Assembly: GCA_950295325.1 (NCBI GenBank)
Contig: OX485805.1
Location: 24,973,501-25,037,500, forward strand
DNA length: 64,000 nucleotides
From: Polytrichum commune
Taxonomy: Eukaryota > Streptophyta > Polytrichopsida > Polytrichales > Polytrichaceae
Reading direction: 5' to 3'
Position 1 is the stretch's first letter. Every line of letters begins with the position of its first letter. The notes beneath the pieces were generated by a model. It did not search any database, was not told the origin of the DNA, and was given only the letters and a program-made list of their open reading frames with translations. A program made the position numbers and the translations under genes. Shown in pieces: positions 7,206-51,700 of the stretch.

Positions 7206-9034
7206 ATGGGCTCGTCAGTACTCTTCAGTGGCAACTTCTGTCCTCTTAGCTTAAGTAGGATGAGAATGAAGGTTGCGGGTGTTTTTGATTTGGTGCATTG
7301 GAAGCAGAGAACTGACAGGTTTGTGTGCCAGCTGCAGGTGCTTCCTGAGTATCTACAAGAGGATATAATTAATCGGCTTGAAAATGCAAAGAACATTGCA
7401 TTGGCAAGTTGTGTGTGCACATCCTTCAGGGAGGCTGGTAAAAGAATCAAGTCACTTCGAATAGTCTGTTTGAATGAGTATCATGTTGGAGCTAGGGCTG
7501 AAAGACCACCCTCCAACTTAAACCAAAGATGTGATTCCAGTGCGTCAACTTCTTCACAGATTGTAAATGACGGTGCATCAAGTTCTTCACATATCCTACA
7601 CAATTCAGCTACAAACGTTGACGACGACGGATATTCATCTGCAGATGAGAGAAGACCCTTGATTTTCAGGGATCTGGTGGTAAAAGTTCTGAAAGATAAA
7701 CACTTTTTGGTCCAACTCCGCATTGAAATTGAACCAAGACTACAGTCAAAATCTGTCCCAGAGGGTGAGAGGAGAAAGACAGACCATTGGTTGAGTGATC
7801 CATTACATCTGAAGCAATGGATACCTTCTGTAAAAGATACTTTACAGCATCTGTGCATTGTGGACTATGGACAGCAGGCCATCATGCGAAGGACACAAAT
7901 TTTGAAGTTATTGTCACAGAATTGTGAGTGGCTCTTTCTGCAGATAAGATCAGAAGAGATTTGAGATTACTGCTGTAATATCCCACTTGTAATGATAATT
8001 AGATAGTTAGACGGTGTCATGTTGGCAGGATCATTGGTAGGTCATTAGTAGACCATCGTGTCATTGTGTTGGAAAATTGACTGCTGTTGTCCTTTGTATA
8101 TGTGCTATTGACAGGCAAATTATTGAAGACCTTAGATCTGAGGAATATGTTCATTGATACACAAGATCTGCAAGAAATGCCTCTGATGACAAGCTTTACA
8201 ATGCGATGTGTGAAAGTGAATGGGGGGGCCTTACAGGACATCAACGATCGTATGCAAAACCTATTGACCTTGGCACTCCTAGGAGTATTTGGAGTAACAA
8301 ATGGAAATTTGACTTTCCCAAATATGAAGGTTCTGTGCCTAGGCCTATCAACCATGGCCAAAGATGTGACCATCTGTTTACCTACTCTTGTGAAGTTGCA
8401 GCTGAAGATGCAGTGTCCTGAGAAACTGAGCCTCAATGCTCCCAGCTTGCAGTTCATTGCATTCAACTTAGAAGTTCCAGAAATGATGAGGTTGGAGCTG
8501 AAGAATATTTGTAATTTGCAGGAGGTGCTCTATGGTGCCTCCAATTTTGATACACTCGTAAAAATAATCAGGACGAATCGGAATATAGACAAAGTCTTCC
8601 TGGATATTCCCTGCATGGCTCTTGGTGAAGATGGAAAGTGGTTGGGAGTTCTGAAAGGTATTCCTCTGAACTTACCCAGTTTTGCTCAACTACACAAGTG
8701 CGAAAAGCTGGGTGTTCTAAATATTGGGCCTGGGTTATGGCATTCCATGGAGGAGAATCTGGACTTGGTGGTGACAGCGGACAAGTGGCCCCCTGTGAAG
8801 AGATTGATAGTTCATATGATACCTCAGAATTTGGACACATGTCTAGCCATTTTTCATATTCTACTGAAGTCAACATTAACCTCCTTAGAGATCAATGTGC
8901 ATACCAATAGTCCAGTTGAATATGATGTCATTATCCCCAGAGTGAAGGATATGGTTACAGGCTATGGACCGTGCTTCATTTTCAACCCCAAGCTGTGGAC
9001 AAAGAGTTTGGACTTCTCGTGCTTCACATTCTAG
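7206..9034 (+). CDS. F-box/LRR protein, two exons (7206-7923, 8115-9034)
   Basis: Predicted substrate-recruiting subunit of an SCF (Skp1-Cullin1-F-box) ubiquitin ligase. The F-box lies at about residues 45-80 (LPEYLQEDIINRL, then a CVCTSFREAGKRI helix). A serine-rich linker follows, then irregular leucine-rich repeats from about residue 215 to the C terminus. Exon 1 ends at the donor GTGAGT (7924) and exon 2 starts after ACAG (8114). Joining them restores a codon and gives LLSQNCKLLKTLDLRN, an ideal LRR, which supports the 191-bp intron. The total is 1,638 nt, about 545 aa. By memory, the pattern resembles the Arabidopsis At4g29420 F-box/LRR group, including its tryptophan-containing segment before the LRRs. 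An in-frame TAG precedes ATG 7206; an internal ATG (7261) or an unseen 5' exon is possible, so the start is uncertain. The substrate is unknown. Confidence 0.8.
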
Positions 9035-36253: not shown

Positions 36254-36766
36254 ATGGATGAAAGAGCAGCTTCGACCATGGAGGAGAATGAATTGACCTG
36301 GGTGGATCCCAAGTTGATAAAGTACTCACAAGCTAGCATTAGCCATAAATTCCGCAACAATGATAAGAGGTGGACTGGTGAGAATAATAAAAGTGCATCA
36401 TACGCCGAGGCTGTTAGTGCGAACCGACCTTTGGAGTTGGAAACTACTTTGGAGCTCCTCAAAGCTGGAAAACTGAAGGTGACTGACTTTCCACCAATTC
36501 GCGTAGTGCCCCACGAGAATATCTTGTACACTCTCGATAATCGACGACTCTGGGTTTTCAGATCTTACGGGGCTTTGATTCCAGTACTGCTCAAGGAGGT
36601 GGGCAAAGAATTTTTCCAGAAGCTATCGAGGGAAGGCGATGGGGAGACTGTTACATTCATCACTGCAGATAATGCCAAAGATTACAAAATGAAGCGGACG
36701 TTGCCGTCGGTTGTGTTGAAGTGGTCCCTGGAGGACATTTTGAATGATAAGCTCCTTGTGAACAAG
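36254..36766 (+). other. Exon 1: ParB/Srx-like N-terminal domain
   Basis: Residues 16-103 carry [18 protein letters not shown], then [14 protein letters not shown], and DNRRLWVF at 95-102. This order (an I-x-x-S-Q entry strand, a PPIRVV strand, and a Y-x-L-D-N-R-R-L loop) resembles ParB/sulfiredoxin-fold proteins and small eukaryotic ParB-like proteins. The end of the exon ([15 protein letters not shown]) already belongs to the Sen1-like helicase and continues seamlessly into exon 2. ATG 36254 is chosen because it follows a good acceptor (36209). The intron opens with GTG TGA, so unspliced RNA would end one codon past the exon. Confidence 0.65.
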
Positions 36767-39700
36767 GTGTGACTTGATATTCTCGGATCTTCGCTTTATG
36801 TGCAGGGTGAGGTCTTTTGTAGTGATGTGCATTGATTCCCATTTAGAAACAAGTGGTAGGCAAGAGAAATATAAACTCTGAATCCATTTATCTTCACTAA
36901 CATTGGTCATCTTGAGAGTAGTTGATCCTCATCAAACTTAAGGTCTGTGGGCCTTATGTGGTCACTCTTCTAAATAGGACACGTCTGTTTAAGTGGTATA
37001 TCAAGGCTTGTAGTAAAAAACGGACAGCAAATAGACATGTGTTACGATGAGATTGGACCATGTGCTCAAAATATAGACATCATAAAATTAATGGCTAACA
37101 AAATTGGTAGGGCTTATGTGATCACTTTAAGAGAAAATATTCACTCTCACCCCTGATAAGTTTTCAATCTCGATTCCCATTCTGAGAAATAATATGACAA
37201 TTTTCATGATGCACAATTACTAACCAGATGAGACAATTCCCATGCCGATCCACACAGCCAAAAATGTTTGTGGAGTTGGAAGCCCAGAATACGACCACAG
37301 ACCCTACACAGTTTTGGGCATTACTTGGACGTGTTTCTGTAGACTCTTTGTGCGAATTTGGCACATGAATTGACAGATTCCTTTAATGCAGGTGCAACCC
37401 ATTCCCATGCGGTTCAATTCCCTTTCAAATTATTTGGAGTGCTTCAAGGACCCCTTGGTGGAAGAAATCCGTGCGATGCTTCAGCATTCGTTGGAGGAAA
37501 TTCAATCAGCATCTTATATACCGCTCGAAAGGGCAGAAGAGAGAAAAAAGGGAAGGACATCTGATTCAGACACACAAAATTTAAAGACTTTCATGCTCAT
37601 GTGGGACCCAGATAAACCTATTGTAAAGAGGGGAAAGAAGGGCAAATTGGCTTGGAAGCCGAAGCCGACAGACATAATTCTGTTAACAACTGAGGTGCCA
37701 CAGAGTGAGTACAAGGAGCTACAGAGATCCGGAGTTTTATATACTCTCGGAATCCTCAAGGGCAGTTGCGAGGATGACGACCATGTTGTATCAGCAAATG
37801 TTTATGCTCCATCGGAAAGCCCAGAATACAAGGCCTTGCGTGACGGCAAGGAGTTTTTTGCTGTACAAATGGGCAACCTGGCAACAGGCAAGCGCATCTG
37901 GGAAGCATTGGTTCGAGCTTTGCCAGAGAAGAACCATAATATGAGCCTTCCAATTTTAAATGAGCTTTTATATTCAGAGTTGGTATGCATCAAAAACCTC
38001 ACTATGATGACTTCTGTGAAGTATTTTACAATCTTATCAGCTTGTGGAGGTAGTTTGTGATCATCACGTTTTCTGAGATACTTTCTGGAATCCTTAACCT
38101 CTTGTTCACTGAATGCTCTCACTGCCCACCCATGTTGAATAATGTGCTTTGATGAATACACAATTTCAGTATCCATTGTGTATGTGCATCTCATGAGAAT
38201 GCAGCCTTTTAGAAGAGGGCTTAGTGTATGGAGAAATTTGATGTTGTTGTGCTGCTAGCTGTGAATCCATTTGAATGAGTACAGAATGAGTACAGAATGA
38301 GTACAGAAATGGCTCTACTGTAGAATTACCTTTCATTTCTTTCATGAAAGTCCATGTTCTTTCAGCACAATCCGCTCCGTCTGGGTGGTCGTGGGTGGCT
38401 GAAATTTCTTTCTGAATTGCTTAAGTCTCCCTCTCTTCAAATTCATATGTTCCTTTCAGAAGTGTAATCTCTTTTAAAACCGATGCCATTCAACTATCAC
38501 CTAGTTTGAGCTTCAGAGAAGCTTACACATATTATGGCTTTGTTGCTTAGCAATGGGTTGGAAATTCCTTGTGTTACAAGCTGCCTCCTAACTACAAGCA
38601 GTTCTTCTTTCCCTGTCTCTGGTTTTGCAGGATGGAGACTCGAGGGTTTTAGAAAGGAGTGAGAATCTTCCCAATAAAAACATTGAGGAAAAGGAACTGA
38701 TTGACGGGTATTGCGTGTACAGAGGGCTCAACGAGTCACAGTCTACGGCTCTGAAAACTTCAGTAACTGGTCTCTTGCTTGAGCTGAAACCCCATATCCG
38801 CCTGATTCAAGGTCCTCCAGGCACAGGCAAAACCGCAACCCTTGCAACTCTCCTGTCCATTTTGAGCTGTCTTAAGCAGAGAACACTCGTGTGCGCACCT
38901 ACAAACGTCGCGATTTCTGAAGTGATACTCCGGTTCTTGGAATTTTTCACTGCCAAACCTCCTGCTGCAAGCAAGAACTGTCTCCTCTTTGGTCAATTCC
39001 GCGGCCTTTACAGACCGGCGGAGGGTGAAGATTGTGTACAGCTGGGTGATTTGGTTTTAATTGGGAACAACGACCGGCTCAATTTCGACGGACCGCTTGA
39101 ACAAGTGTTTCTTGACCGGCGGGTCGACCGGCTCATTGATGCTTTTTCTCCAGTTTGTGGATGGAGGGCTTCAACATCATCCCTGCTGGAGTTTCTAAGA
39201 TCCTCAACCATGCAGTATGAGATTTACAAGGAGACCCAGACAAATGAAGTGGGTGGGCTGAGTTTTATCGAGTTTCTTAAGAAGAAGTTGAAACTTTTGG
39301 CAGAGAAGTTTTTAAATCACTGCCATGTTCTGGGCAATGACTTGCCAAGCAGTTTTACATCAGCGAGTGTTGTCTCTGTTTTGAGAAAGTGTTCTATGTT
39401 GGTGAAAAGATTTTTGGAAAAAGTAATGCAATCTGAATCGAAAGTAGCGGACGACATGCTACGGTGCTTTCGAGGTTCCTCCGGCGTCCAAATCAAGGAA
39501 GCTACAAATAATAAGAGTGCTTCAGGTTTTGCCAAGCTTATGCATGAACTTCAAGATGCATTGGCTGCAATGCCGGATGATGTGACCTGTCTCAAAGTTC
39601 CTAACAAACCCGGCAAGGAATGGATGCATGAGAAATGCCTTGAACATGCAAGGCTTGTGTTTAGCACATTGTCATCAGCTGGGAGGCACATCTTATTGAA

Positions 39701-42700
39701 GAGCAAGCCTTTCCAGTGTGTTATTGTTGATGAAGCTTCGCAATGTGTGGAGGCGGAAACAGTGATTGTTACAAGTATGAAGGGAGTGAAGCAGATGGTT
39801 TTAGTTGGGGATCAAATGCAGCTTCCAGCTACTGTCATAAGCCAGGTAGATCCTAATCGAAGAATATGCAATGCTTGAAATAAATTGAGATGAAGCAGTC
39901 AAATCTGTCATGAACCATAAAATCCGAGTGGACTTTAGTGGGTCTCGAGCACTATGAGACTACCATGCGATTTGAGAAAGCCAAACCAGAAAGCACTCGA
40001 CGGTAGTGCACTAGCCCTTTAACCAATTGAAAAAGAACAGTAACTTTAGCTCACAAGATCTTAACTGATGGATGGTGTTTGAGTCGCGAATTTAGATGCA
40101 GGTTGCACTTGGTAGATCCTTATCGAAGGAATTGCAATGTTTGAAATGAAATGAAATGAAGCAGTCAAAATTTATTACGAACTTTAATTTTCATGTGGGA
40201 TTTGAATGGTCTCGAGCAGTATGAGATTGCCATGTGGCAATTTTTTTTCCTCCCAGAATAATCCTCTAATAAAAGCCAAAGCAGAAAGCTCTCGATGGTA
40301 TTGCACCAGCCCATTAACCAATCGTAAAAGAACATTGACTTTTAAGCTCCAAGATCATAAAGGATGGATGAGGGTGTTTGGCTGCCGAATTTGGATGCAG
40401 GTTGCACAGGGCTGTGGCTACGGAAGGAGCTTATTTGAAAGACTACATGGTGTAGGCCATCCAGTTAACCTCCTGGATGTTCAATATCGTATGCACCCTG
40501 AGATAAGTATGTTCCCTAATGCTCAGTTTTATGGTGGCAAAATTCAAGACGGCAATAACGTTTGGAAAGGTCGGTACAACACTGAGGCATGTCAACAGAT
40601 TTTCTCCGGGCCATACAAGTTCATCAATATCCAGGAGGGAAGAGAGCAGAGAGATGAAGGGCAGACCAAGTCCTGGAAGAACCTTCTGGAAGTGGAGATT
40701 GTGGTTTTGTTAATCTCAAGGATACAGAAAGGTCAGTAATAAGTGCAGCTGCGATAATGGGTCCATGTAGACGCATGCAATCACAGTTTGACACGTGGTC
40801 CATTATCAGACCTTCAGCTACCTGTGACCTTCATTACCTCAGTCTAAGTTTTGGCTCTGCTTTGTTGTCTGCTCATCCGCTTCTAGTGACATAGATGGTC
40901 TTAGACAATAACAGATTAAATTTGACAAATCTGTGATGAAGCATAATTCTGTCATAAAAAATTTCATGGATTTATTTAAAATTTTCATGTGACAGCAGCT
41001 TGTGAGAAGGCTAAAGTGGAGAGACTGAGTATTGGCGTGATCTCTCCGTATCAAAGCCAAGTGGACAACCTGGAGAGGAGGCTAAGCCACTACATGAAAA
41101 TGGACGACATTACTGTGGAGGTCAAGTCTGTGGACGGTTTTCAAGGGAGAGAGAAAGATATCATAGTATTTTCTACGGTTAGAGCCAACAGAGATGGAAA
41201 CATTGGGTTCTTAGACGATCATCGCCGCCTCAATGTTGCCATTACACGTGCAAAGTAAAATCTGGGTCCCTTCTTTTACATCCTCAGAAGACAAATTTCC
41301 TGTTGTATTGTTGAAATACAAATTGATTACTTTCTCTTGAAGGCTTTTGGAAAAGACCAAACAAGTTCTAGCTGTATGCATATTTCCATGAATGCTAGTG
41401 TTCTCAATGCATTCACCTTAATTTCAGTTAAAACAACAGACAGACTGGAACCTAAATATCTCCAAATCTGCTGATTTGGTTGGAACAGATATTGTATGTG
41501 GATTGTTGGAAACGGGAACACGTTGACAGCAAAGGATGCAGTTTGGAAAGCTCTGTTTGAAGATGCAAAGCAGAGAAGGTGCATTCTAGACCCAGGGTCC
41601 GATTCAGAAATGACAAAGAAAATCAGGAAGGTTATGCAGGAGCTCGACCAGCTTGCAGATCTTCTTCGTCCTAATTCAGTCCTGTTCAATGGCACTTTAT
41701 GGAAGGTACACTCAAGGCCTTCCTGATTTCAAAAGTGGAACCTTTCTTCTTGTTGCTAATTCATATTCCTTTGCGGTCATATTAGAGTACTCCTTTTCTT
41801 TGGGAGTTGGTCCCCTGTAATTTTTTATTTGGAGTTTTGCGTACAGAATTGATGATTTTATTTCCACTTGTGGTGCATGCTCGGAGGTAGTGCTTGAATC
41901 TGAACGAAAAGCAACCAATTTGGGTTCATTCAGGGCCAAACTCGTTTTAGCACCTCATGGCATGCCAAAATGAGTTTGACCCTCAATGAATCGCTATGGA
42001 ATCCTCTTCGTTCAATTCTTCAGACTACCTCCAAGCATGCGCCGAAAACTTACCATACTTGGAAGGTATTGTATGCAAAACAACCAATTCCTGAATAGAG
42101 AATGACTCAATTTTTATTTCCTATTTGTATTTTGTGACACAATGATTTTGGGCCTTTTAAAAAAAACAAAAATAAAAATCTGTCATGACAATTATTCCCT
42201 AAGTGAGTGAAAGCTTGTTGATGATGTTGTTTACTCCTTACCAAGGTCCAATACTTCTGTCAAGGTCACTAAGGAAGCCATTTTGCATGTGCAGGTTCTA
42301 TTTGCTAGGGAAATGAAAACCACAATCACAAGCATCAAGTCGAGGGAAACCAGGCAACACTTATTGAACAAAATGGTGCATCTTGCAAATGGCAAAAGAT
42401 CTCCGTTAAAACCCACAGATTTAGCCAGTGCAAGATATAAAAAACTCATTCAAGTCGAGCCAGTAATAGATTATTTTTTGGTGTGGACAGTTGATGTGGA
42501 GAATGGCACGCAGATCATTAAAGTTTGGAATGCAGTTCAGATCTCCGGGTTAAGTTCTCTAGTGCGGCGGCTTGAAGGTGGGTTCTCCATGTGCACAGAC
42601 AATTACATTGACCGTTGTACAAGGAAACAAGTAGATCAATTCAAGAAAAGCCTTGTCGTTCCTGCAAAATGGAGCTCAGAGCATTCTATTGCCAAATACA

Positions 42701-45700
42701 AATCCTTGGAGGAAATGAAGCATAAGCCTGTGAGTGGCGTCGAAGGTGTTGTGGACGACACCAAACTTCCCCTTGAAAAATCGGATGTGGATGACAGTGT
42801 GTTGCTCATGAAATTTTACTCTTTATCCTCAGGGATTGCACACCAACTTCTGACAGCTTCAGATGGGTCTCAGCTGTCCCTACCTTTTGAGGTGAATGAG
42901 CAGGAGGCAGGTATAATTAAGTACCCAAGAAGTTCTTTTATCATCGGTCGATCCGGGACAGGCAAGACCACTGTGATCACAACAAAATTACTGCAGCGAG
43001 AGCAGGAATTTTGGATTGCATCGAATGGCATCGCAAGCCCGGGTGATGAAGGCGAGGAAGAAGGTGAAGAAGGAGAAGGCGAGGAAGAAGGCGCTTTGAA
43101 TCCAGAGGCCACAGGGTTTCTTAAGCAAGCTTTGGTTACTTTGTCACCGAAATTGTGTGCCGCAGTGAAGCATAACATCTCCAAAACACGCCGGTATGCA
43201 CTGCTTGAGGAGACATTATTGTCGAGATCATCCATCACTAAACAGGGCCACATCAAACTGTATTTAGTTCATTGGGTTGATGTTTTTCCAATCTTTCACT
43301 CCGAGCAATTGGGTTATCAGGAATGGAATTTTCTATACTGCTCACAGGACCTGCACCTGTATTGGATTAGACCACTTTTGATGTTGTTGCATTCACAGCA
43401 TCCACCGACAAGTAGGCATGAACTATTGAAGGTTTTATCAGGAAACATTGTGATTTTCAAAGATAACAACCTTCTAACAACCAAAGCTTGCCCATTGTGC
43501 ACATATACCAAAATCTTGCACATTGTTCTCTATATCAAGATCCTCACAGTTTCGATGTCCCATCTACAGATCGATGCAACAAGCGGCGGGTGGTGCTGCA
43601 AATGCAGACACCAACAGTGATGATATTTCTGAGGAGATAATGCTAGATGACGAGGCAGAAGCCAAGCTCATGGGAGCCATTCCTGATAACTTCACGCACA
43701 TCCCACGCGACTGCTATCCTCTGGTCATCACATTCCGCAAGCTACTCACCATGCTTGACGGCAGCATTTCAAGGTCATTCTTCTCGTTGAATGTGGAAGA
43801 CCAACAAGAAGATGCACTCATCATGAGAGTCAACACCGCCCCAGACACGGTGAAGGTTGAAAAGCAGACAGCGGAAGTGAGAATCGGCGAAAATGGCGAA
43901 GTAGTCGAAGTTGGTGGTGATCACGGAGACAATGATAGCAGGCAAGAGGATGCGGACTTTAGTGATGTTGACGAGGAACGGAGCTTCAGCGAGGGAGATG
44001 ATGATGAGGATGGGTTGTCGCAAGATGGAAAAGGCCAAGAAGTGAGCAAACATGGAAAATGGGAGGGTACCGAAGTTGAATTTGACCGGTTTGCATGGAC
44101 ATATTGGCCGCATTTCGACATGAAGTTGACGAAGAATCTTGACCCATCAATGGTATACACAGAAATCATGTCCCACATCAAAGGTAGTGTTGAGGCGCTT
44201 CGAAGTCCTCATGGGAGGCTAACCCGGGAGGATTATGTTGCCATGGCAGAACGCCGATCCTCACTCTACACTGAACAACAAAGAGACAACATCTACTCTT
44301 TGTTTTTGAAGTACGAGAAGCAGAAGAGGGAGACTTATGAATATGATGTCGCCGACCTTGTCACACATCTGTACTTGGAGCTTCAGAAGAGTGGAGGATT
44401 TCTGGGTGAGAAAATGCACTTCCTGTATGTCGACGAAGTCCAGGACTTTACCCAGGCGCAAATTGCTCTGCTTAAATTTATCTGTAGCAATTTAGAGCAA
44501 GGCTTTGTATTTGCTGGTGACACGGCACAAACAATTGCACGTGGTGTTGGTTTCCGGTTCGAAGATGCCCGCCGCCTCTATTACGAAGAGTTTCTTGGGA
44601 AGACAGAACAATTTGCAGTACCACAAAAAGCATCCTTGGAAAAGAAAGTCCCTGACCTCTTCCAGCTGACCATGAACTTTCGTACGCACATGGGGGTGGT
44701 TGCCATAGCTGACAGTGTGGTGAAGCTATTGCACCGATTTTTCCCAAACTCGCTTGACAAGCTGGATCCAGAGAGAAGTTTATTGCATGGTGATGTCCCA
44801 GTGTTTTTGAAGACGGAGGAAAATCGTGGGCTTGTCACCAGTCTCTTTGATATGGGGGGAACTGCAGGGGGAGGCGGCTGTGAATTTGGAGCGGAACAAG
44901 TGATACTGGTGCGCAATAATGAGATCAAGCATCAAATCCTCACCCAGATCGGACACCAGGGGCTTGTTTTAACTGTGCACGAGTGCAAAGGGCTCGAATT
45001 TCAGGTACCCTTCCCAAAGAATTTAGACATCATGCGTTTCTAATCCTACAATGCTGTGAAGCTGATTGGATCCGTGAAAGCTTTTCTTATCCCCAGAGGT
45101 GCAGTCGAGAAAGATGGTCAGGCGAATTGCAAGGAGAATGTAATAAGATCAGAGTTGGAACTCTGCAACCCATGATTTCATGCAGAATGACACAATAGCA
45201 ATACAATATCAATAATTTTCCACCACTTGTAGTGCATGCTCGGAGGTAGTGCTTGAATTTGAACGAATGGCAACCTATTTCGGTTCATTGAGGGCCAAAC
45301 GCATTCAGCACCTCTTGGCATGCAAAATTGAGTTTAGCTCTCAATGAACCAATACAGAATGTTCTTCGTTCAAACCTCTACACTATCCTCCAAGCATGCA
45401 CCAACAACTTTACCGGACATTGAAAGGTCTCATATGCAAAACAACCAACTCCCGACAAAAAATCATGCTGAGATATAATATAACTTCAATATTTCAATGG
45501 TTACTATGGGATACCTGGTCATAACAAAGTCATCATCAGCATTTCTCAGTTTAAAGGATGTGAATCCCTAATATAGGTGTTGAAGCGTTGGTTGGTTTTG
45601 CAGGACGTTCTTCTGTATAACTTCTTTGCAGACTCCCCACTACGAAACAAGTGGCGGGTGATAATCGCCTACATGGTTGAGCAAGACTTGGTGAAAAATG

Positions 45701-48700
45701 TGACATTCCCTCAATTTGATGTCAAACACCACAACCTCCTGTGCAGTGAGCTGAAGCAGCTGTACGTGATGTTGACACGGGCACGGCAGAGGCTGTGGAT
45801 CTACGATGAGTGCTTCGAGAATCACCAGCCCATGTTAGATTACTGGGAGGCTTCTGGGTTGGTGAAAGTCAGGCAACTTGATGCTTCTCTTGCTGAAGAG
45901 TTGCAGGGCAAAAGCTCTGCCGACGATTGGAATAAGCGAGGTGTGAAGGTAATGTGTAGGATCAACTTTGTATGAGGTAGATGGACCTTACTTGGTTACT
46001 CTCTCCTGTTTTCTACCTTATACTACTTGGATTCGCAAGGCTGAAATCTTCTGTGTCCACATATGTATCTTAAGAGGCTCAGATCAACCCCATAAAATTT
46101 TGAAGCTAATCTCGAATTGTTATGAACTCTCAAAGTCACCTCAGAAATCCATGTAATTACCGTCTCATTGTTTATATGTGAAGTGGGTGTATAAACCCTA
46201 CACTCCCTCTGCACATTTTGTTAATGACTTGGGATTTTTTTTGACACAAATGTTTTTGCTCAAATGAACAGATGTTTAATGAGCACCACTACGACGCCGC
46301 GAAGCTGTGTTTTGACAGGGCAGGTGATGCTCCGAAAGCTCGACATGCATCGGCTGCAAGTCTTCAGCAAAAAGCGGAGAAGCTTCAGGTCACAAATCCA
46401 AAGGAATCAATACGTATTTTGCGAGAAGCAGCGGAGCTTTACATCTTGATTGGCAAAGGAGAAAATGCTGCGAAATGCTACAAGAATTTCCGAGAGTACA
46501 AAAGAGCTGGTAGCTAACCTATCACCAAGATCGTGCTCTCAGAGTTCCCAACTTTATAAAATGATGACATTGAATAATCAAAAAGGTTGAGAAGAGCTAT
46601 GAGTCTGTTATTATACACTTGATTTGATGAGCCCTCATTGTTTTTGTGTTGATTCAGGTTTTGTGTACCTCGATGATTGTAAGCCTCCGAACTTGGAAGC
46701 TGCAGGCGACTGCTTCGCGGAAGCAAAGTGCTGGCAAGAGGCAGCTAATGCGTATTCACGGATCAACATGGTTAAATGCCTTACCATGTGCTGGCGGGGG
46801 AAACTTTTGGATGAGGGTCTTAAATTCATCGAGGAGTGGGAGGAATGGAGAAAAAGAAAACCTGAAACTCATAATTCATCAATCAGTGCAGCACGTGATA
46901 AGAAAGAGAAATTAGAATTTGAAGCCACAAAAACTTTAGAGTTTTTAAAGAAAGCCGCTGCACACTACCACATGGGAAAAAATGTGGGGGAGATGATGAA
47001 GTTTGTGTTCTCGTTTCCAAGTCTCGCGGTGCGGCGCTCGTTCCTCAAGCGACGAGATTATATGGATCAGTTGCAGTTCATTGAGGAAGGTGCCGGGAAT
47101 TTTGAAAAGGCCGCCGAGTTGGCCGAGGCAAGGGGAAACCTAAAATATGCAGCGACACTCTTTGAGAAAGCAGGTTCAATCTCGTTGGCAGTGGAGAAGC
47201 TCCTCCATTTTGCAGCCTTGGAGATTTTATGGAAAGATGGCAACAAAGGTTGGCCAAAGCTCCTCACACATGAAGTAATCCAAGTACTTGAGCATGCAAA
47301 CTCTCTGGTGGTGCAACATAAATCCAATGTGGATGCTGCCATCATACAGGAACTGCACATTTTTCAGTCTGTGTCCTCTGCCAAAATTGAGATCTACGAA
47401 AAAAGCTACGAGCAAGCGCGAAAGTCGAAAGTCATAAGGCTGCAGCTATTAAGCTCTTATCTTCTACTTCAGGAGCTTGGACGCATTGTAATTGAAAAGT
47501 GCGCAATTGAACAGCAAGGGGACGATAACACAGTTATTACTAGCTTGCTGAGGGATCAGGTCCCAAATCTTAGGAAGGTTTGGAACGACTGGAGCGAGTG
47601 CATTGTGTCTTTCATTAATGCATTGGATAGGCTTCAGAAGGGAAGGGGGAGAGAAGAAGATGAGCCAATGTTGGAATGTATAAATTCCTATTTAGGTGTG
47701 ACGAGACAACTGCGTACTGTCACTGTTGAGTACTCAAAAGCCCATTGGCTGGTGAATTCTTCTCTCAGTGCATTAGGAAAGAAAAACAGTAAGCAGACAC
47801 TGTCTGTTTGGGAATTTGCAGATTTAGCCTCCCAATTCTTTGATAGCCAACTACTTGAGGTTGGTGACCTTCTCGAGAAGGTTTTCTCAGACCTCAAGAA
47901 AGTAGTGAGCAACATCATGGACATGAACGTCAGATTTAGCAACCTTGTTCGAGTTCTACTACTCAGGTTCAATGTCTTATGGTTCGTGTTGAACGCGAAA
48001 ACACGCCATGGAAATACAAGAGTGCAGTTGAAGATGAAAATCATAGAGGTTGCTACACAGCTTTACGATTTGCTATTTATTGACATGCCAGCTCACAGCA
48101 TGAAGGAGGTGGCAGTCATCCGAGGGTCACCAGATGCACAGCTCGTATTTGAGACACTGGCAAAAGACCTGAGTCAGACAGAGGTTGAAATGACATCAGG
48201 AATCATGTCCTATGATCAACTGGGGAAACTTGTGACCATGCAACCTTTTCTGGGGAATGACTGGGCTTTGGGGGAGGCTTTCAAGAAAATTGAGGGAATA
48301 TTGCAAAAATTAATGCCCCCAAAAAAATCCTCCTGGCCAGAGTATCACCCTAAACTTGCACTCTGGCAAGGGTCGCAGTCGCAGCACAGTGCGGTGCTGA
48401 AGTCCATACCCAAGCCCATACCCAAGCCCGAGTCTCAGTGCTATCACTGGTCTGAAAGGATCCAGTGGTTTATGTTGTCTTTGAGAGATATCTACACCTG
48501 GGAGGACTTTCGTGCACCAGGATACCTCTCCCCAATGGTGTTTCTGGGCCTTTTTGAGAGAGGAGTTATCGCAGCATGTGCATATTGCACACACCTGAAG
48601 AGCATGCTCGTTACAGAGAGTATGGCACTGTGTTACATGGGCGGCAAGCATTATGAACCTTACTATTCTTTTCTGCTTAACTCGACGTGTGTTGGTGACC

Positions 48701-51700
48701 ACTGGATTCTGCAAGGTAAAGAGCTCATGCAGTGCTTTTTAATTTTGTTTATACTTTCACGAATCCGATTATTCTGTACGTTCCTATGGTGGAATTTCCT
48801 TTTGAAGCTTTGTTGTCCACTCTTTGAGTCTCATGGCGACTTTGATCTATGTATGTCATTCTGCTGGTGGAAGAATGGTAGCAGATGATGTAAGATAATA
48901 CAAGATGCTAAATCCTTCTTCAGAATTCATCTAGTGTAGGAGACTCATAAGAGTATTAGTGGTAGAAATTCAATGAAGAAGTTGTATTTGTGGGAAATTT
49001 GTCCATTTGTCCATGGGATGTAGAGTTGTAGGATTGTAGAGCTTTGGTACTCTAATCAAGGAGTCGATGTTGAAACCTATACACCTGCATATATTGTACT
49101 CACCACAACGCCTGGAGGTCAGAGGCTAAACACAACATCTGATATAGTGTGACTCACAAAATTTGTCTTGCAACCATGGGTGGCAATGAGTCAGGCTGTC
49201 AAATGACACTTGGTGCTACATGACAAGTTAGGAAGCCCACGTTAAATACCATAGCACACTAATATTCGTGCCACACTAATTCAGATGTTTAGTGTAGCAT
49301 GGAGGTTCTTTTGGACATTGAGAAGCTTTCTAGCATAGTTCTGATGAGCTATATAACAAGCTCTATTTGCAATGCTGCAGATTTGCTAGAGGGTGCTGCT
49401 GACCTTAGCCTTGACCTTCTCTTCAAAGATTTAAAGCTTGAGAAGTGGTTCAATGACTCCAAAGTAGACAAAGGGATGTACTGGCCATTGGTGATTCTGC
49501 GCCTGTTCAAGCTAGTGATCACAATTTGTATCAATACTGACCAGGGCCGAATCCATAGGAGAGTCCTTGGAGGCTTGATTGCGCTCTTTCGAAAGCAGTC
49601 TCGAGTCCTAGCCGAGCTTTCACCTCATTTGAAAGAAGAACTACAAAAAGTCTTTCCCAAAACTTCGGAACAGAATCCGCCGATAGCAAAACTCGTCGAT
49701 GCCTTCTCCTTGGCAATGAAAGCCATGGGGGATCCATTGATTGTGCTCCGGAAAAATGGACGTCCACATGCAGGTATGAGTTGGCATACTACGGCTCAAA
49801 AGAATTTGAGAGTGGTTTGGGTGGAGGACCGGTTGCAGACATACTCAACGTTCAATCTTACTGCACTGGAGCAAAAGACAGTTACTGTGGGTGCCAATGA
49901 AACTGTCAGTAAAACAGGCATGGAAAAAATGGGCTCTGAAGATGAAAAGGAGCTTAAGATGGAAGATGAGGGTGAGGGATTCTCTGATTGCAACAAAGTC
50001 ATCGAGGACGAAGAAGGTGCACAGAAGACCTCACATTTAATATCCGAAAATTCCTTGCAATTGGATTCGTTGAGCAGTTTCAGAAAACCAGGTATTTATC
50101 TATCACTCCAACTTGTGTGGATACATCTGAAGTTTTCCTCTGGGAACAGTCTGTGAAGGTCATCATTGTGACTCGCCTGAATATGAAGGTCTCAGTCCCC
50201 TTGACACTTCAAAAGAAAATGTTGGAATATGTGTAATAGAAACATGAAGGAATTCACAGCTTAAGAGTAGATTGAGTTGGCTTTGACCTTGGTATCTTAG
50301 TATGCCATTCTGGTATTGGAATGTCATTTCAAGCTATACAGGTCACAGGGGAACAGCTGGCATTTTCTCAATTTCAAATTATTTGTGGCCAATTGCAATG
50401 GCTTCTTATACATGTTGAACTCCAAACTACCGTAGAGTGCTGTGTGCAGAGAGGCAATTTCCATGTGGCGCGACACATGAATAACCAATTGGTGTTAACT
50501 AATGTAAATATGACACGAGGCAAAATTATTCCAATGCATTAATTATTGTGTCGACCAAACAACACTCTATGGTATTTGTAATGAATTGTCTGGTAACTGC
50601 TCTAATGCCTTTTTGAATGCTCATGTACTATATAGGTCACGAAGTCAGTAAAGTAGCACCAAGCTCCATGACATCAGATAGTGTGATATTGGAGGATGGC
50701 ACAAGACTCTCAAGAGCAATTGTTGAGCAGCTGAAGAGGCTACTTGCAGCAGCGAGAGAGAATATCCAAATTCCCTTGACTCCTGTGGAGACTTACCAGC
50801 GTGAGGCGCGCTCCGTCTTCCTACGGAAATGCATAACGGATAAAGTGTACATTGAGTTATTCAACTCTAAGGCTTGCTCGCTCTTGGTATTGGTCCTTAC
50901 CTACCCTCTTGATAATAGAGTTATTCTTAGAGTAAAAACCAGTGTTTTAAGGAAATCAGGACCCATTAAGTGGGTTCCAGGGGTGAGATTGAGCTTATTT
51001 GGAAAGAAAAGGCACTTTAGAGATTTCTATATGTAACTCGTGCAGCCTAATCAATGGACCCCCTCTTTTAGACCTTGAACAACAAAAGGGTGACATCAAA
51101 GTGTAATGGAGGGTGGGGGTGGTTCAATGACTCAAACTCAAGATTGGGCCCAAACTCGTGAATCCTCTCTTGTTGACCCAAAACTCAATCTTCCTTGAGT
51201 TTATCTTATGACTAAATAGAGGACGCTATAAACGCGATCTTGAGAAGATTCCTATAAAACTCATGGTTTCAACCCTCCCTTTTGGCACTTCACAAATAAC
51301 TTTCATATCTCCATTTTTTGTAAACATGACAGAAGATTGCAAACCCTAAGGCCTGGGACGCTGACCAGGTTACAGAGGAGATGGTTGTGGGTTGTGAATA
51401 TAATATGACCCAAAGAATCTAGTGCCCCATCAATACTGAGGTCAAGGATAATAGAATTTTGTAAAATTTTGCAATTATCTGTCTGTAATCAAATCTAACC
51501 ATACGGAACCCTAAGTGGCAAGGTGAAATTTCTCTTTGTCGTTAATCTGGTTGTCCTGATGACAGGCTCATGTGGATGAGCATTTGATGAAACTCAATAA
51601 GGCGCTGGACATCATCAAAGACAATGAAAAGCTCGATGACGAAGGCGAGTTGTTGGAGAGATTTAGTGATGCCAAGGAAACGCTCGAAGGAGCTGTAGGG

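What the first reader, a model, noticed from the sequence alone, without database searches (positions are those of the whole stretch)
36254..36766. ParB/Srx-like domain fused to the N terminus of a double helicase
Seen: exon 1 encodes a ParB-like segment ending in DNRRLWVF and, in the same open exon, the first residues of a Sen1-like helicase, which join exon 2 in phase. Known: eukaryotic ParB-like proteins exist as small proteins, and plant TRANK1-like proteins join two helicases; I do not recall a published ParB-plus-Sen1-plus-UvrD protein. ParB-fold domains bind or hydrolyse nucleotides, so this could be a nucleotide-gated clamp on a nucleic-acid motor.
Basis: partly seen in the sequence, partly recalled or inferred. 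Interest (0 to 1): 0.8.

Follow-up and report, generated by a model that had tools for sequence, protein, structure and literature searches.

The report
Toxin-derived domain on a plant helicase
A large helicase, probably of a plant, begins with a small ParB-fold domain whose bacterial relatives look like the toxic tips of weapon proteins, which suggests that an old toxin part was taken over as the working end of a protein that handles DNA or RNA.

Summary
Exon 1 (36254-36766) encodes a ParB-fold domain and, in the same frame, the first residues of a Sen1-like helicase; it joins exon 2 (37392) in phase 0. A profile of six bacterial relatives alone finds this exon among 1210 window ORFs at E 4.3e-17, next 0.19. 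It is neither sulfiredoxin nor partition ParB. Five of the six bacterial relatives lie directly before a DUF7660 gene, presumably immunity, the layout of polymorphic toxin tips; it best fits Tox-ParBL1 (Zhang et al. 2012), though the type sequence was not compared. A model of one bacterial relative matches ParB and sulfiredoxin structures. A second gene in the genome has the same exon order and a shared insertion, and its domain groups with this one (94/92), so the fusion is not a one-off. The window gene adds a UvrD-type helicase. A CTP-gated clamp is not supported: HTH, dimerisation domain and GERR motif were not found. I favour a domesticated toxin effector positioned by a nucleic-acid motor; the effector role is inference. 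No transcript or other plant genome could be tested.

The parts
36254..36766 (+). Exon 1: ParBL1-type domain plus the first residues of the helicase; 171 codons, ends phase 0 before GT at 36767
36293..36670 (+). ParBL1-type (ParB-fold) domain core, about residues 14-139 of the exon
   Evidence: HMM of six bacterial relatives E 4.3e-17; 11-sequence HMM 1.5e-36, which includes this sequence
36365..36433 (+). Insertion of about 23 residues between the first motif and the helix; paralog L002 has one of about 18 at the same place; absent in solo and bacterial relatives
   Evidence: alignments
36536..36547 (+). DNRR motif (residues 95-98), at the place of ParB's GERR / P motif
   Evidence: invariant in 11 of 11 rows; aligned to GERR by hhalign
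36710..36766 (+). [19 protein letters not shown]: helicase N-terminal tail in the same exon as the ParB-fold domain
   Evidence: a like tail and the same phase-0 intron place in helicase genes L013/L014, in which no ParB-fold domain was detected
37392..37982 (+). Exon 2, Sen1-like helicase N-terminal region with DUF6469 (just under cut-off)
38631..41705 (+). Exons 3-6, Sen1-like SF1 helicase (AAA_11, AAA_12), inferred exons 38631-39845, 40401-40731, 40996-41254, 41489-41705
   Evidence: AAA_11 3e-45, AAA_12 6e-63
42295..45972 (+). UvrD-type helicase part (P-loop GRSGTGKTT in the exon from 42295, UvrD match in the frame 43478-45040, C-terminal piece 45577-45972); joins exon 6 in phase at 41705|42295
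   Evidence: UvrD-helicase 2.1e-9; UvrD_C_2 6.8e-4, below cut-off; later exon borders not resolved
46245..48885 (+). Probable helical, TPR-like tail of the gene (weak RPN7/SNAP matches at 46245-46514 only; no match at 46603-48885)
   Evidence: below curated cut-offs; that it belongs to the same gene is inferred

Best explanation
The N-terminal part of this helicase is a domesticated effector domain of the Tox-ParBL1 type, a ParB-fold family that in bacteria forms the toxic tips of polymorphic toxins. In this gene it sits in the same exon as the start of a Sen1-like RNA/DNA helicase, which is followed by a UvrD-type helicase and probably a helical tail. Shown here: the homology, the fold (through a relative), the in-phase junction in the DNA, the second gene with the same order. 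Inferred: the helicase motors bind and move along unusual or foreign nucleic acid, and the ParB-fold domain, using its conserved Ser/Thr and DNRR residues to hold a phosphate or nucleotide, acts on that nucleic acid or on a nearby target (cleavage or phosphoryl/nucleotidyl transfer), so that the protein works as a sensor with an attached effector, probably in nucleic-acid surveillance or defence.
For: Exon 1 homology to bacterial relatives. Five of six bacterial relatives are directly followed by a DUF7660 gene; L022 has a pretoxin HINT domain in the same frame (1.6e-16), L021 a weak PT-TG match (7e-4, below cut-off) and an RHS-like start (motif recalled). The Haliovirga copy lies on a plasmid within a few kb of RHS and RelE/ParE genes. 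Zhang et al. 2012 (PMC3482391; section 25, part 1 of section 47 and passages seen) define Tox-ParBL1 by a predicted ParB fold, an N-terminal Ser/Thr and [NT][RT][RT], list viridiplantae among its holders and propose transfer to eukaryotes. Fold: AF2 of L051 pLDDT 79.9, pTM 0.75; PDB matches are ParB, Noc, KorB, Spo0J and Srx, viral-library matches include proteins named ParB/Sulfiredoxin. Motif residues kept in both fused copies. Fusion found twice, domains group at 94/92, insertion at the same place. The closest PADLOC model for the Sen1-like exon is MkoA, E 6.9e-22, which may only reflect general helicase kinship; that Mokosh pairs such a helicase with an effector is recalled.
Against: No tested activity of a ParBL1 domain appeared in the parts of papers I read. 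The effector role, the target and the defence setting are inference. Toxin-delivery or pretoxin features were found in only two of the frames scanned (L021 weak, L022); L018 and L020 gave none, L019 is cut short and L051 was not scanned upstream. No immunity partner was seen in this genome: DUF7660 gave no match in G000, but the control rang nowhere, so that is not evidence of absence. The C-terminal KFTTRNEG-type motif of bacterial members is only loosely kept (KLSREGDG). In the other fused copy (L002) the junction needs a GC donor and the helicase exon begins with ATG, so its splicing is unproven. Helicase genes without a detected domain exist in the same genome, so the motor does not need it.
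Confidence: 0.45

Rival explanations
1. The domain is a non-catalytic regulatory module: it binds a nucleotide (ATP, GTP or CTP) or a nucleic-acid phosphate and tunes the helicase, without toxin-like chemistry.
For: ParB-fold domains can bind ATP, GTP or CTP through the P-motif arginine and may be scaffolds (PMC12704722, section 8 and passages of section 10; there 11 of 28 purified proteins bound). Both arginines of DNRR are kept. The bacterial tail motif is only loosely kept in the fused copies.
Against: The bacterial relatives found are probable toxin tips, not regulators; the Ser/Thr and DNRR residues are as conserved here as in them.
Confidence: 0.33
2. One reading: a CTP-type nucleotide-gated clamp that closes around nucleic acid and keeps the motor on it.
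For: Same fold as ParB and arginines in the same place.
Against: No HTH, dimerisation or ParB_N Pfam match in the parts scanned; GERR replaced by DNRR; the relatives found are not in partition operons.
Confidence: 0.1
3. Exon 1 is a separate small gene and not part of the helicase transcript.
For: Unspliced, the frame stops one codon after the donor; solo ParBL1 copies exist in this genome; in L002 the helicase exon starts with an ATG.
Against: Exon 1 carries a helicase tail (LKW.....I......K|V) like that found before the same phase-0 intron place in L013/L014, helicase genes with no detected ParB-fold domain; in the window exon 2 starts with GTG behind a good acceptor.
Confidence: 0.05
4. The domain is a sulfiredoxin-like reductase.
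For: Arabidopsis and human sulfiredoxin are among the best structural matches of the relative.
Against: The catalytic Cys of sulfiredoxin's GGCHR motif (recalled) is absent: the place is DNRR in 11 of 11 rows and exon 1 has no Cys at all.
Confidence: 0.02

Closest known systems
Tox-ParBL1 domain of polymorphic toxins (Zhang et al. 2012, PMC3482391)
   Same: ParB fold, N-terminal Ser/Thr, NRR motif, presence in plants stated there; bacterial relatives found here lie beside presumed immunity genes
   Different: Here in front of a helicase inside a eukaryotic gene, with an extra insertion; immunity genes of the relatives are DUF7660, not the SUKH or Imm44 listed there; the type sequence was not compared directly
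ParB / Spo0J / Noc CTPase clamps
   Same: Fold, motif position, arginines
   Different: No HTH or dimerisation domain found, DNRR instead of GERR, no Pfam match
Sulfiredoxin
   Same: Fold; small solo eukaryotic ParB-fold protein
   Different: No catalytic Cys motif
Plant TRANK1-like Sen1-plus-UvrD double helicases (recalled)
   Same: Order Sen1-like, UvrD-like, helical tail; N-terminal helicase tail
   Different: Extra ParB-fold domain in exon 1; that known plant members lack it is recalled, not tested
Mokosh-type bacterial defence helicases (MkoA, PADLOC)
   Same: Best PADLOC model for the Sen1-like exon (E 6.9e-22); helicase paired with an effector (recalled)
   Different: Different partner domains (recalled); bacterial

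Membership tests
Tox-ParBL1 | ParB fold | tested here: met
   Model of relative L051, with the window as an alignment row (three of five models about 77-80 pLDDT, two about 40): best PDB matches ParB, Noc, KorB, Spo0J and Srx, probabilities near 1 at the top, query TM 0.43-0.54, E 0.006-0.94, none below 0.001. Not shown on the window protein itself: its single-sequence model failed, pLDDT 36
Tox-ParBL1 | Conserved N-terminal Ser/Thr | tested here: met
   Ser or Thr in the [FY]-[ST]-[QE] column in 11 of the 11 rows that cover it (12 rows, L019 is cut short); that this is the serine meant in the paper is my reading
Tox-ParBL1 | [NT][RT][RT] motif | tested here: met
   DNRR in 11 of 11 rows of A2 and also in L051
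Tox-ParBL1 | Direct homology to the type sequence of the family | not tested
   The type sequence was not fetched; the link rests on motif, fold, context and taxa named in PMC3482391
Tox-ParBL1 | Toxin tip with immunity neighbour (bacterial members) | tested here: met
   DUF7660 next door in L018-L022, five of six; L051 has another small neighbour with no Pfam match passing its cut-off. That DUF7660 is an immunity protein is inferred. For the plant gene no such partner was found, without a working control
Canonical ParB clamp | HTH and C-terminal dimerisation domain | tested here: not met
   No such Pfam match in exon 1, in the first 1287 residues of the joined model, or in the later frames scanned
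Canonical ParB clamp | ParB_N (PF02195) with GERR-type P motif | tested here: not met
   No Pfam match with the limit at E 10; DNRR instead
Canonical ParB clamp | CTP binding and hydrolysis | not testable with these tools
   Needs DRaCALA or similar
Sulfiredoxin | Catalytic Cys in GGCHR (recalled) | tested here: not met
   Position is DNRR; no Cys in exon 1
Sen1-like SF1 helicase | AAA_11 and AAA_12 domains | tested here: met
   3e-45 and 6e-63
TRANK1-like double helicase | UvrD-type helicase downstream in the same frame | tested here: met
   In-phase junction 41705|42295 and UvrD-helicase 2.1e-9; transcript not seen; one match only in G000

The most novel reading that the evidence does not exclude
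A land plant carries an intracellular nucleic-acid sensor whose effector is a captured bacterial polymorphic-toxin domain: a Sen1-UvrD motor that recognises foreign or aberrant RNA/DNA and triggers a ParBL1 phosphoryl-transfer or nuclease head, a plant counterpart of bacterial helicase-effector defence systems.
Probability: 0.27. Interest if true: 0.85.

Novelty: new variant of a known kind. Interest (0 to 1): 0.6.

Why it matters
ParBL1 domains in eukaryotes were listed in 2012, and the parts I read give them no tested function. A copy wired to a helicase gives a context that predicts one: action on nucleic acid. If the domain is active, it would show a toxin part turned into the working end of a plant nucleic-acid machine; if not, it shows the ParB fold reused as a helicase regulator. 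Either way the prediction is testable with one domain and two arginine mutants.

Tried and rejected
Family libraries: Pfam, NCBIfam, PADLOC and PHROGs gave no family for the exon 1 domain. PDB by sequence gave only chance matches, for the single protein and for the 11-sequence profile. PF02195 in G000 matched four places on contigs C10, C12 and C23 and none of the ParBL1 copies; I take these for contamination, but did not see the contig sizes. The structure of the window protein alone failed (pLDDT 36.1) and was not searched.

hhalign: the profile of five bacterial sequences (L018-L022) against canonical ParB_N gave score 28.1 with 0 of 300 column shuffles reaching it; the trimmed 11-sequence profile gave 19.8 with 1 of 300 reaching it; probabilities were only 54% and 6%; the untrimmed 11-sequence profile gave 28%. 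So sequence profiles alone support the ParB link only moderately. The ParB set was 22 loci (L047 came out empty) and L007-L010.

The 11-sequence profile also gave a marginal match at window 46228-46446 (E 0.0036); the bacterial profile does not support it (E 1; 0.19 for the overlapping frame 46245-46514), and I take it for chance. I suspected a degenerate ParB domain upstream in L013/L014 from one SSNRRLL stretch; the profile found nothing there. Seven viral-contig scans gave one bacterial-type relative, L051/L052 from one contig. Phage records: no match. 377 genomes of the phylum of L018: only its own genome. A rooted helicase tree, which would tell whether L013/L014 lost the domain, was not made.

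Ten literature searches listed no paper on a ParB-plus-helicase protein in plants; I saw listings only, several capped at 12-20 of 100 or more papers, and subscription papers and preprints are not held. Papers opened: PMC12704722 (abstract, sections 6, 7 and 8, passages) and PMC3482391 (section 25, part 1 of section 47, passages).

Full report
Observation. The exon at 36254-36766 is open for 171 codons within a 204-codon frame. It ends AAG|GTGTGA; the next exon starts at 37392 after ...TTTAATGCAG; both are phase 0. The joined model of exons 1-7 reads on in one frame through AAA_11 (3e-45) and AAA_12 (6e-63) to a second P-loop, GRSGTGKTT. UvrD-helicase is matched in the frame 43478-45040 (2.1e-9). 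No transcript was available, so all splice sites are inferred.

What the domain is. Pfam has no family for it. Relatives were found in bacteria: L018 and L019 (2 of 50 pattern matches in genome contigs), three plasmids and one contig of the viral collection, L051. With the window exon itself as query the plasmid matches have E 2e-5 to 7e-4. A profile made from the six bacterial sequences alone finds the window exon at E 4.3e-17 among 1210 ORFs, next 0.19.

Bacterial context. Five of the six bacterial copies (L018-L022) are followed directly by a gene matching DUF7660, E 3.8e-16 to 6.2e-28. L022 has a pretoxin HINT domain in the same frame (1.6e-16); L021 has an RHS-like start (motif recalled) and a weak PT-TG match (7e-4, below cut-off). 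The frames of L018 and L020 gave no such family. L051 has a different small neighbour with no Pfam match above cut-off. This is the layout of polymorphic toxin tips and immunity genes. That DUF7660 is an immunity protein is my inference from its place. The features agree with Tox-ParBL1 of Zhang et al. 2012 (PMC3482391; I read section 25, part 1 of section 47 and passages): ParB fold, N-terminal Ser/Thr, NRR, with plants among the holders. The type sequence was not compared.

Fold. A four-row alignment headed by L051, with the window domain as one row, gave a best model with pLDDT 79.9 and pTM 0.75, weak in residues 91-102; two of the five models stayed near 40. Of the 32 best PDB matches 31 belong to ParB, Noc, KorB, Spo0J or sulfiredoxin entries; rank 24 is an uncharacterised Agrobacterium protein. 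Probabilities are near 1 at the top, but no E-value is below 0.001 and query TM-scores are 0.43-0.54 (50 of 180 matches listed). In the viral library the named matches listed are mostly ParB or sulfiredoxin-like proteins, again none below 0.001 (50 of 310 listed). Profile comparison puts DNRR on GERR of ParB; 0 of 300 column shuffles reach the score of the five-sequence bacterial profile, 1 of 300 for the trimmed mixed profile. The window protein folded alone failed.

Is the fusion real? L002 on another chromosome has a ParBL1 exon (40% identical) followed by a Sen1-like helicase. Both have an insertion at the same place, and their domains group with support 94/92, just under the tool's star of 95/80. 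Two near-identical helicase genes, L013 and L014, have a tail LKW..R.IADPTFLETK and the same phase-0 intron place but no detected ParBL1. So the end of exon 1 belongs to the helicase, and the ParBL1 part has been added to it or lost from the others. L002 needs a GC donor, and its helicase exon begins with ATG, so its splicing is less sure. By my grouping of the 35 AAA_12 matches, G000 has about 19 such helicase loci; 2 of 19 have a ParBL1 match just upstream (places). Of six ParBL1 places, two are fused and four have no helicase seen in the stretch of about 3 kb fetched; of these four L003 has an in-frame stop relative to its kin and L005 a short frame, so some may be pseudogenes. One search adds one short piece. 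These counts are lower bounds. The UvrD part had one match only, the window itself; none was seen in the 20 kb around L002.

Mechanism. ParB-fold proteins can bind ATP, GTP or CTP, and an R-to-A change in the P motif abolished binding (PMC12704722, section 8); 17 of 28 purified proteins there showed no binding. Both arginines are kept here. In that paper a term search gave helicase twice and plant not at all, and sections 6 and 7 name no such fusion. I propose a toxin-derived effector placed by the helicase on nucleic acid. The chemistry, target and defence role are inferred. A pure regulator is nearly as likely; a ParB-like clamp is unlikely because its defining parts were not found.

Novelty. 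ParBL1 in plants is known (2012). Ten literature searches listed no report of its fusion to a helicase (capped listings). I rate it a new variant of a known kind.

Noticed in passing
G000 C2:58673646-58727245 and C3:56281807-56368681 (L003-L006): Four solo ParBL1-like copies in two near-duplicate pairs (blocks of DNA identity about 93-99%); L006 and L004 run on into long tails without a Pfam match, L003 has an in-frame stop and L005 a short frame.
   Followed up: partly
window 41864-42027 and 45223-45385: Two copies of a repeat of about 165 nt in two apparent introns of the same gene, 77-89% identical, with inverted arms, as in a small transposon.
   Followed up: no
window 7206-9031: Another open stretch on the + strand with a weak F-box match at its start (E 0.06, below cut-off).
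   Followed up: no
G000 contigs C10, C12, C23 (L007-L010): The only ParB_N matches found in the assembly lie on these contigs, perhaps bacterial contamination; contig sizes not seen.
   Followed up: no
L013 and L014 (C2:15.97 and 16.02 Mb): Near-identical Sen1-like helicase genes (92% DNA identity over 2.7 kb) about 50 kb apart on opposite strands, within 0.4 Mb of L002.
   Followed up: partly
L021 (Haliovirga plasmid pHIC): RelE/ParE pair, replication protein, integrase and a small protein occur twice in tandem in 12 kb, each unit followed by a different last protein (the ParBL1 tip after the first), as if tips were swapped by a mobile unit.
   Followed up: no
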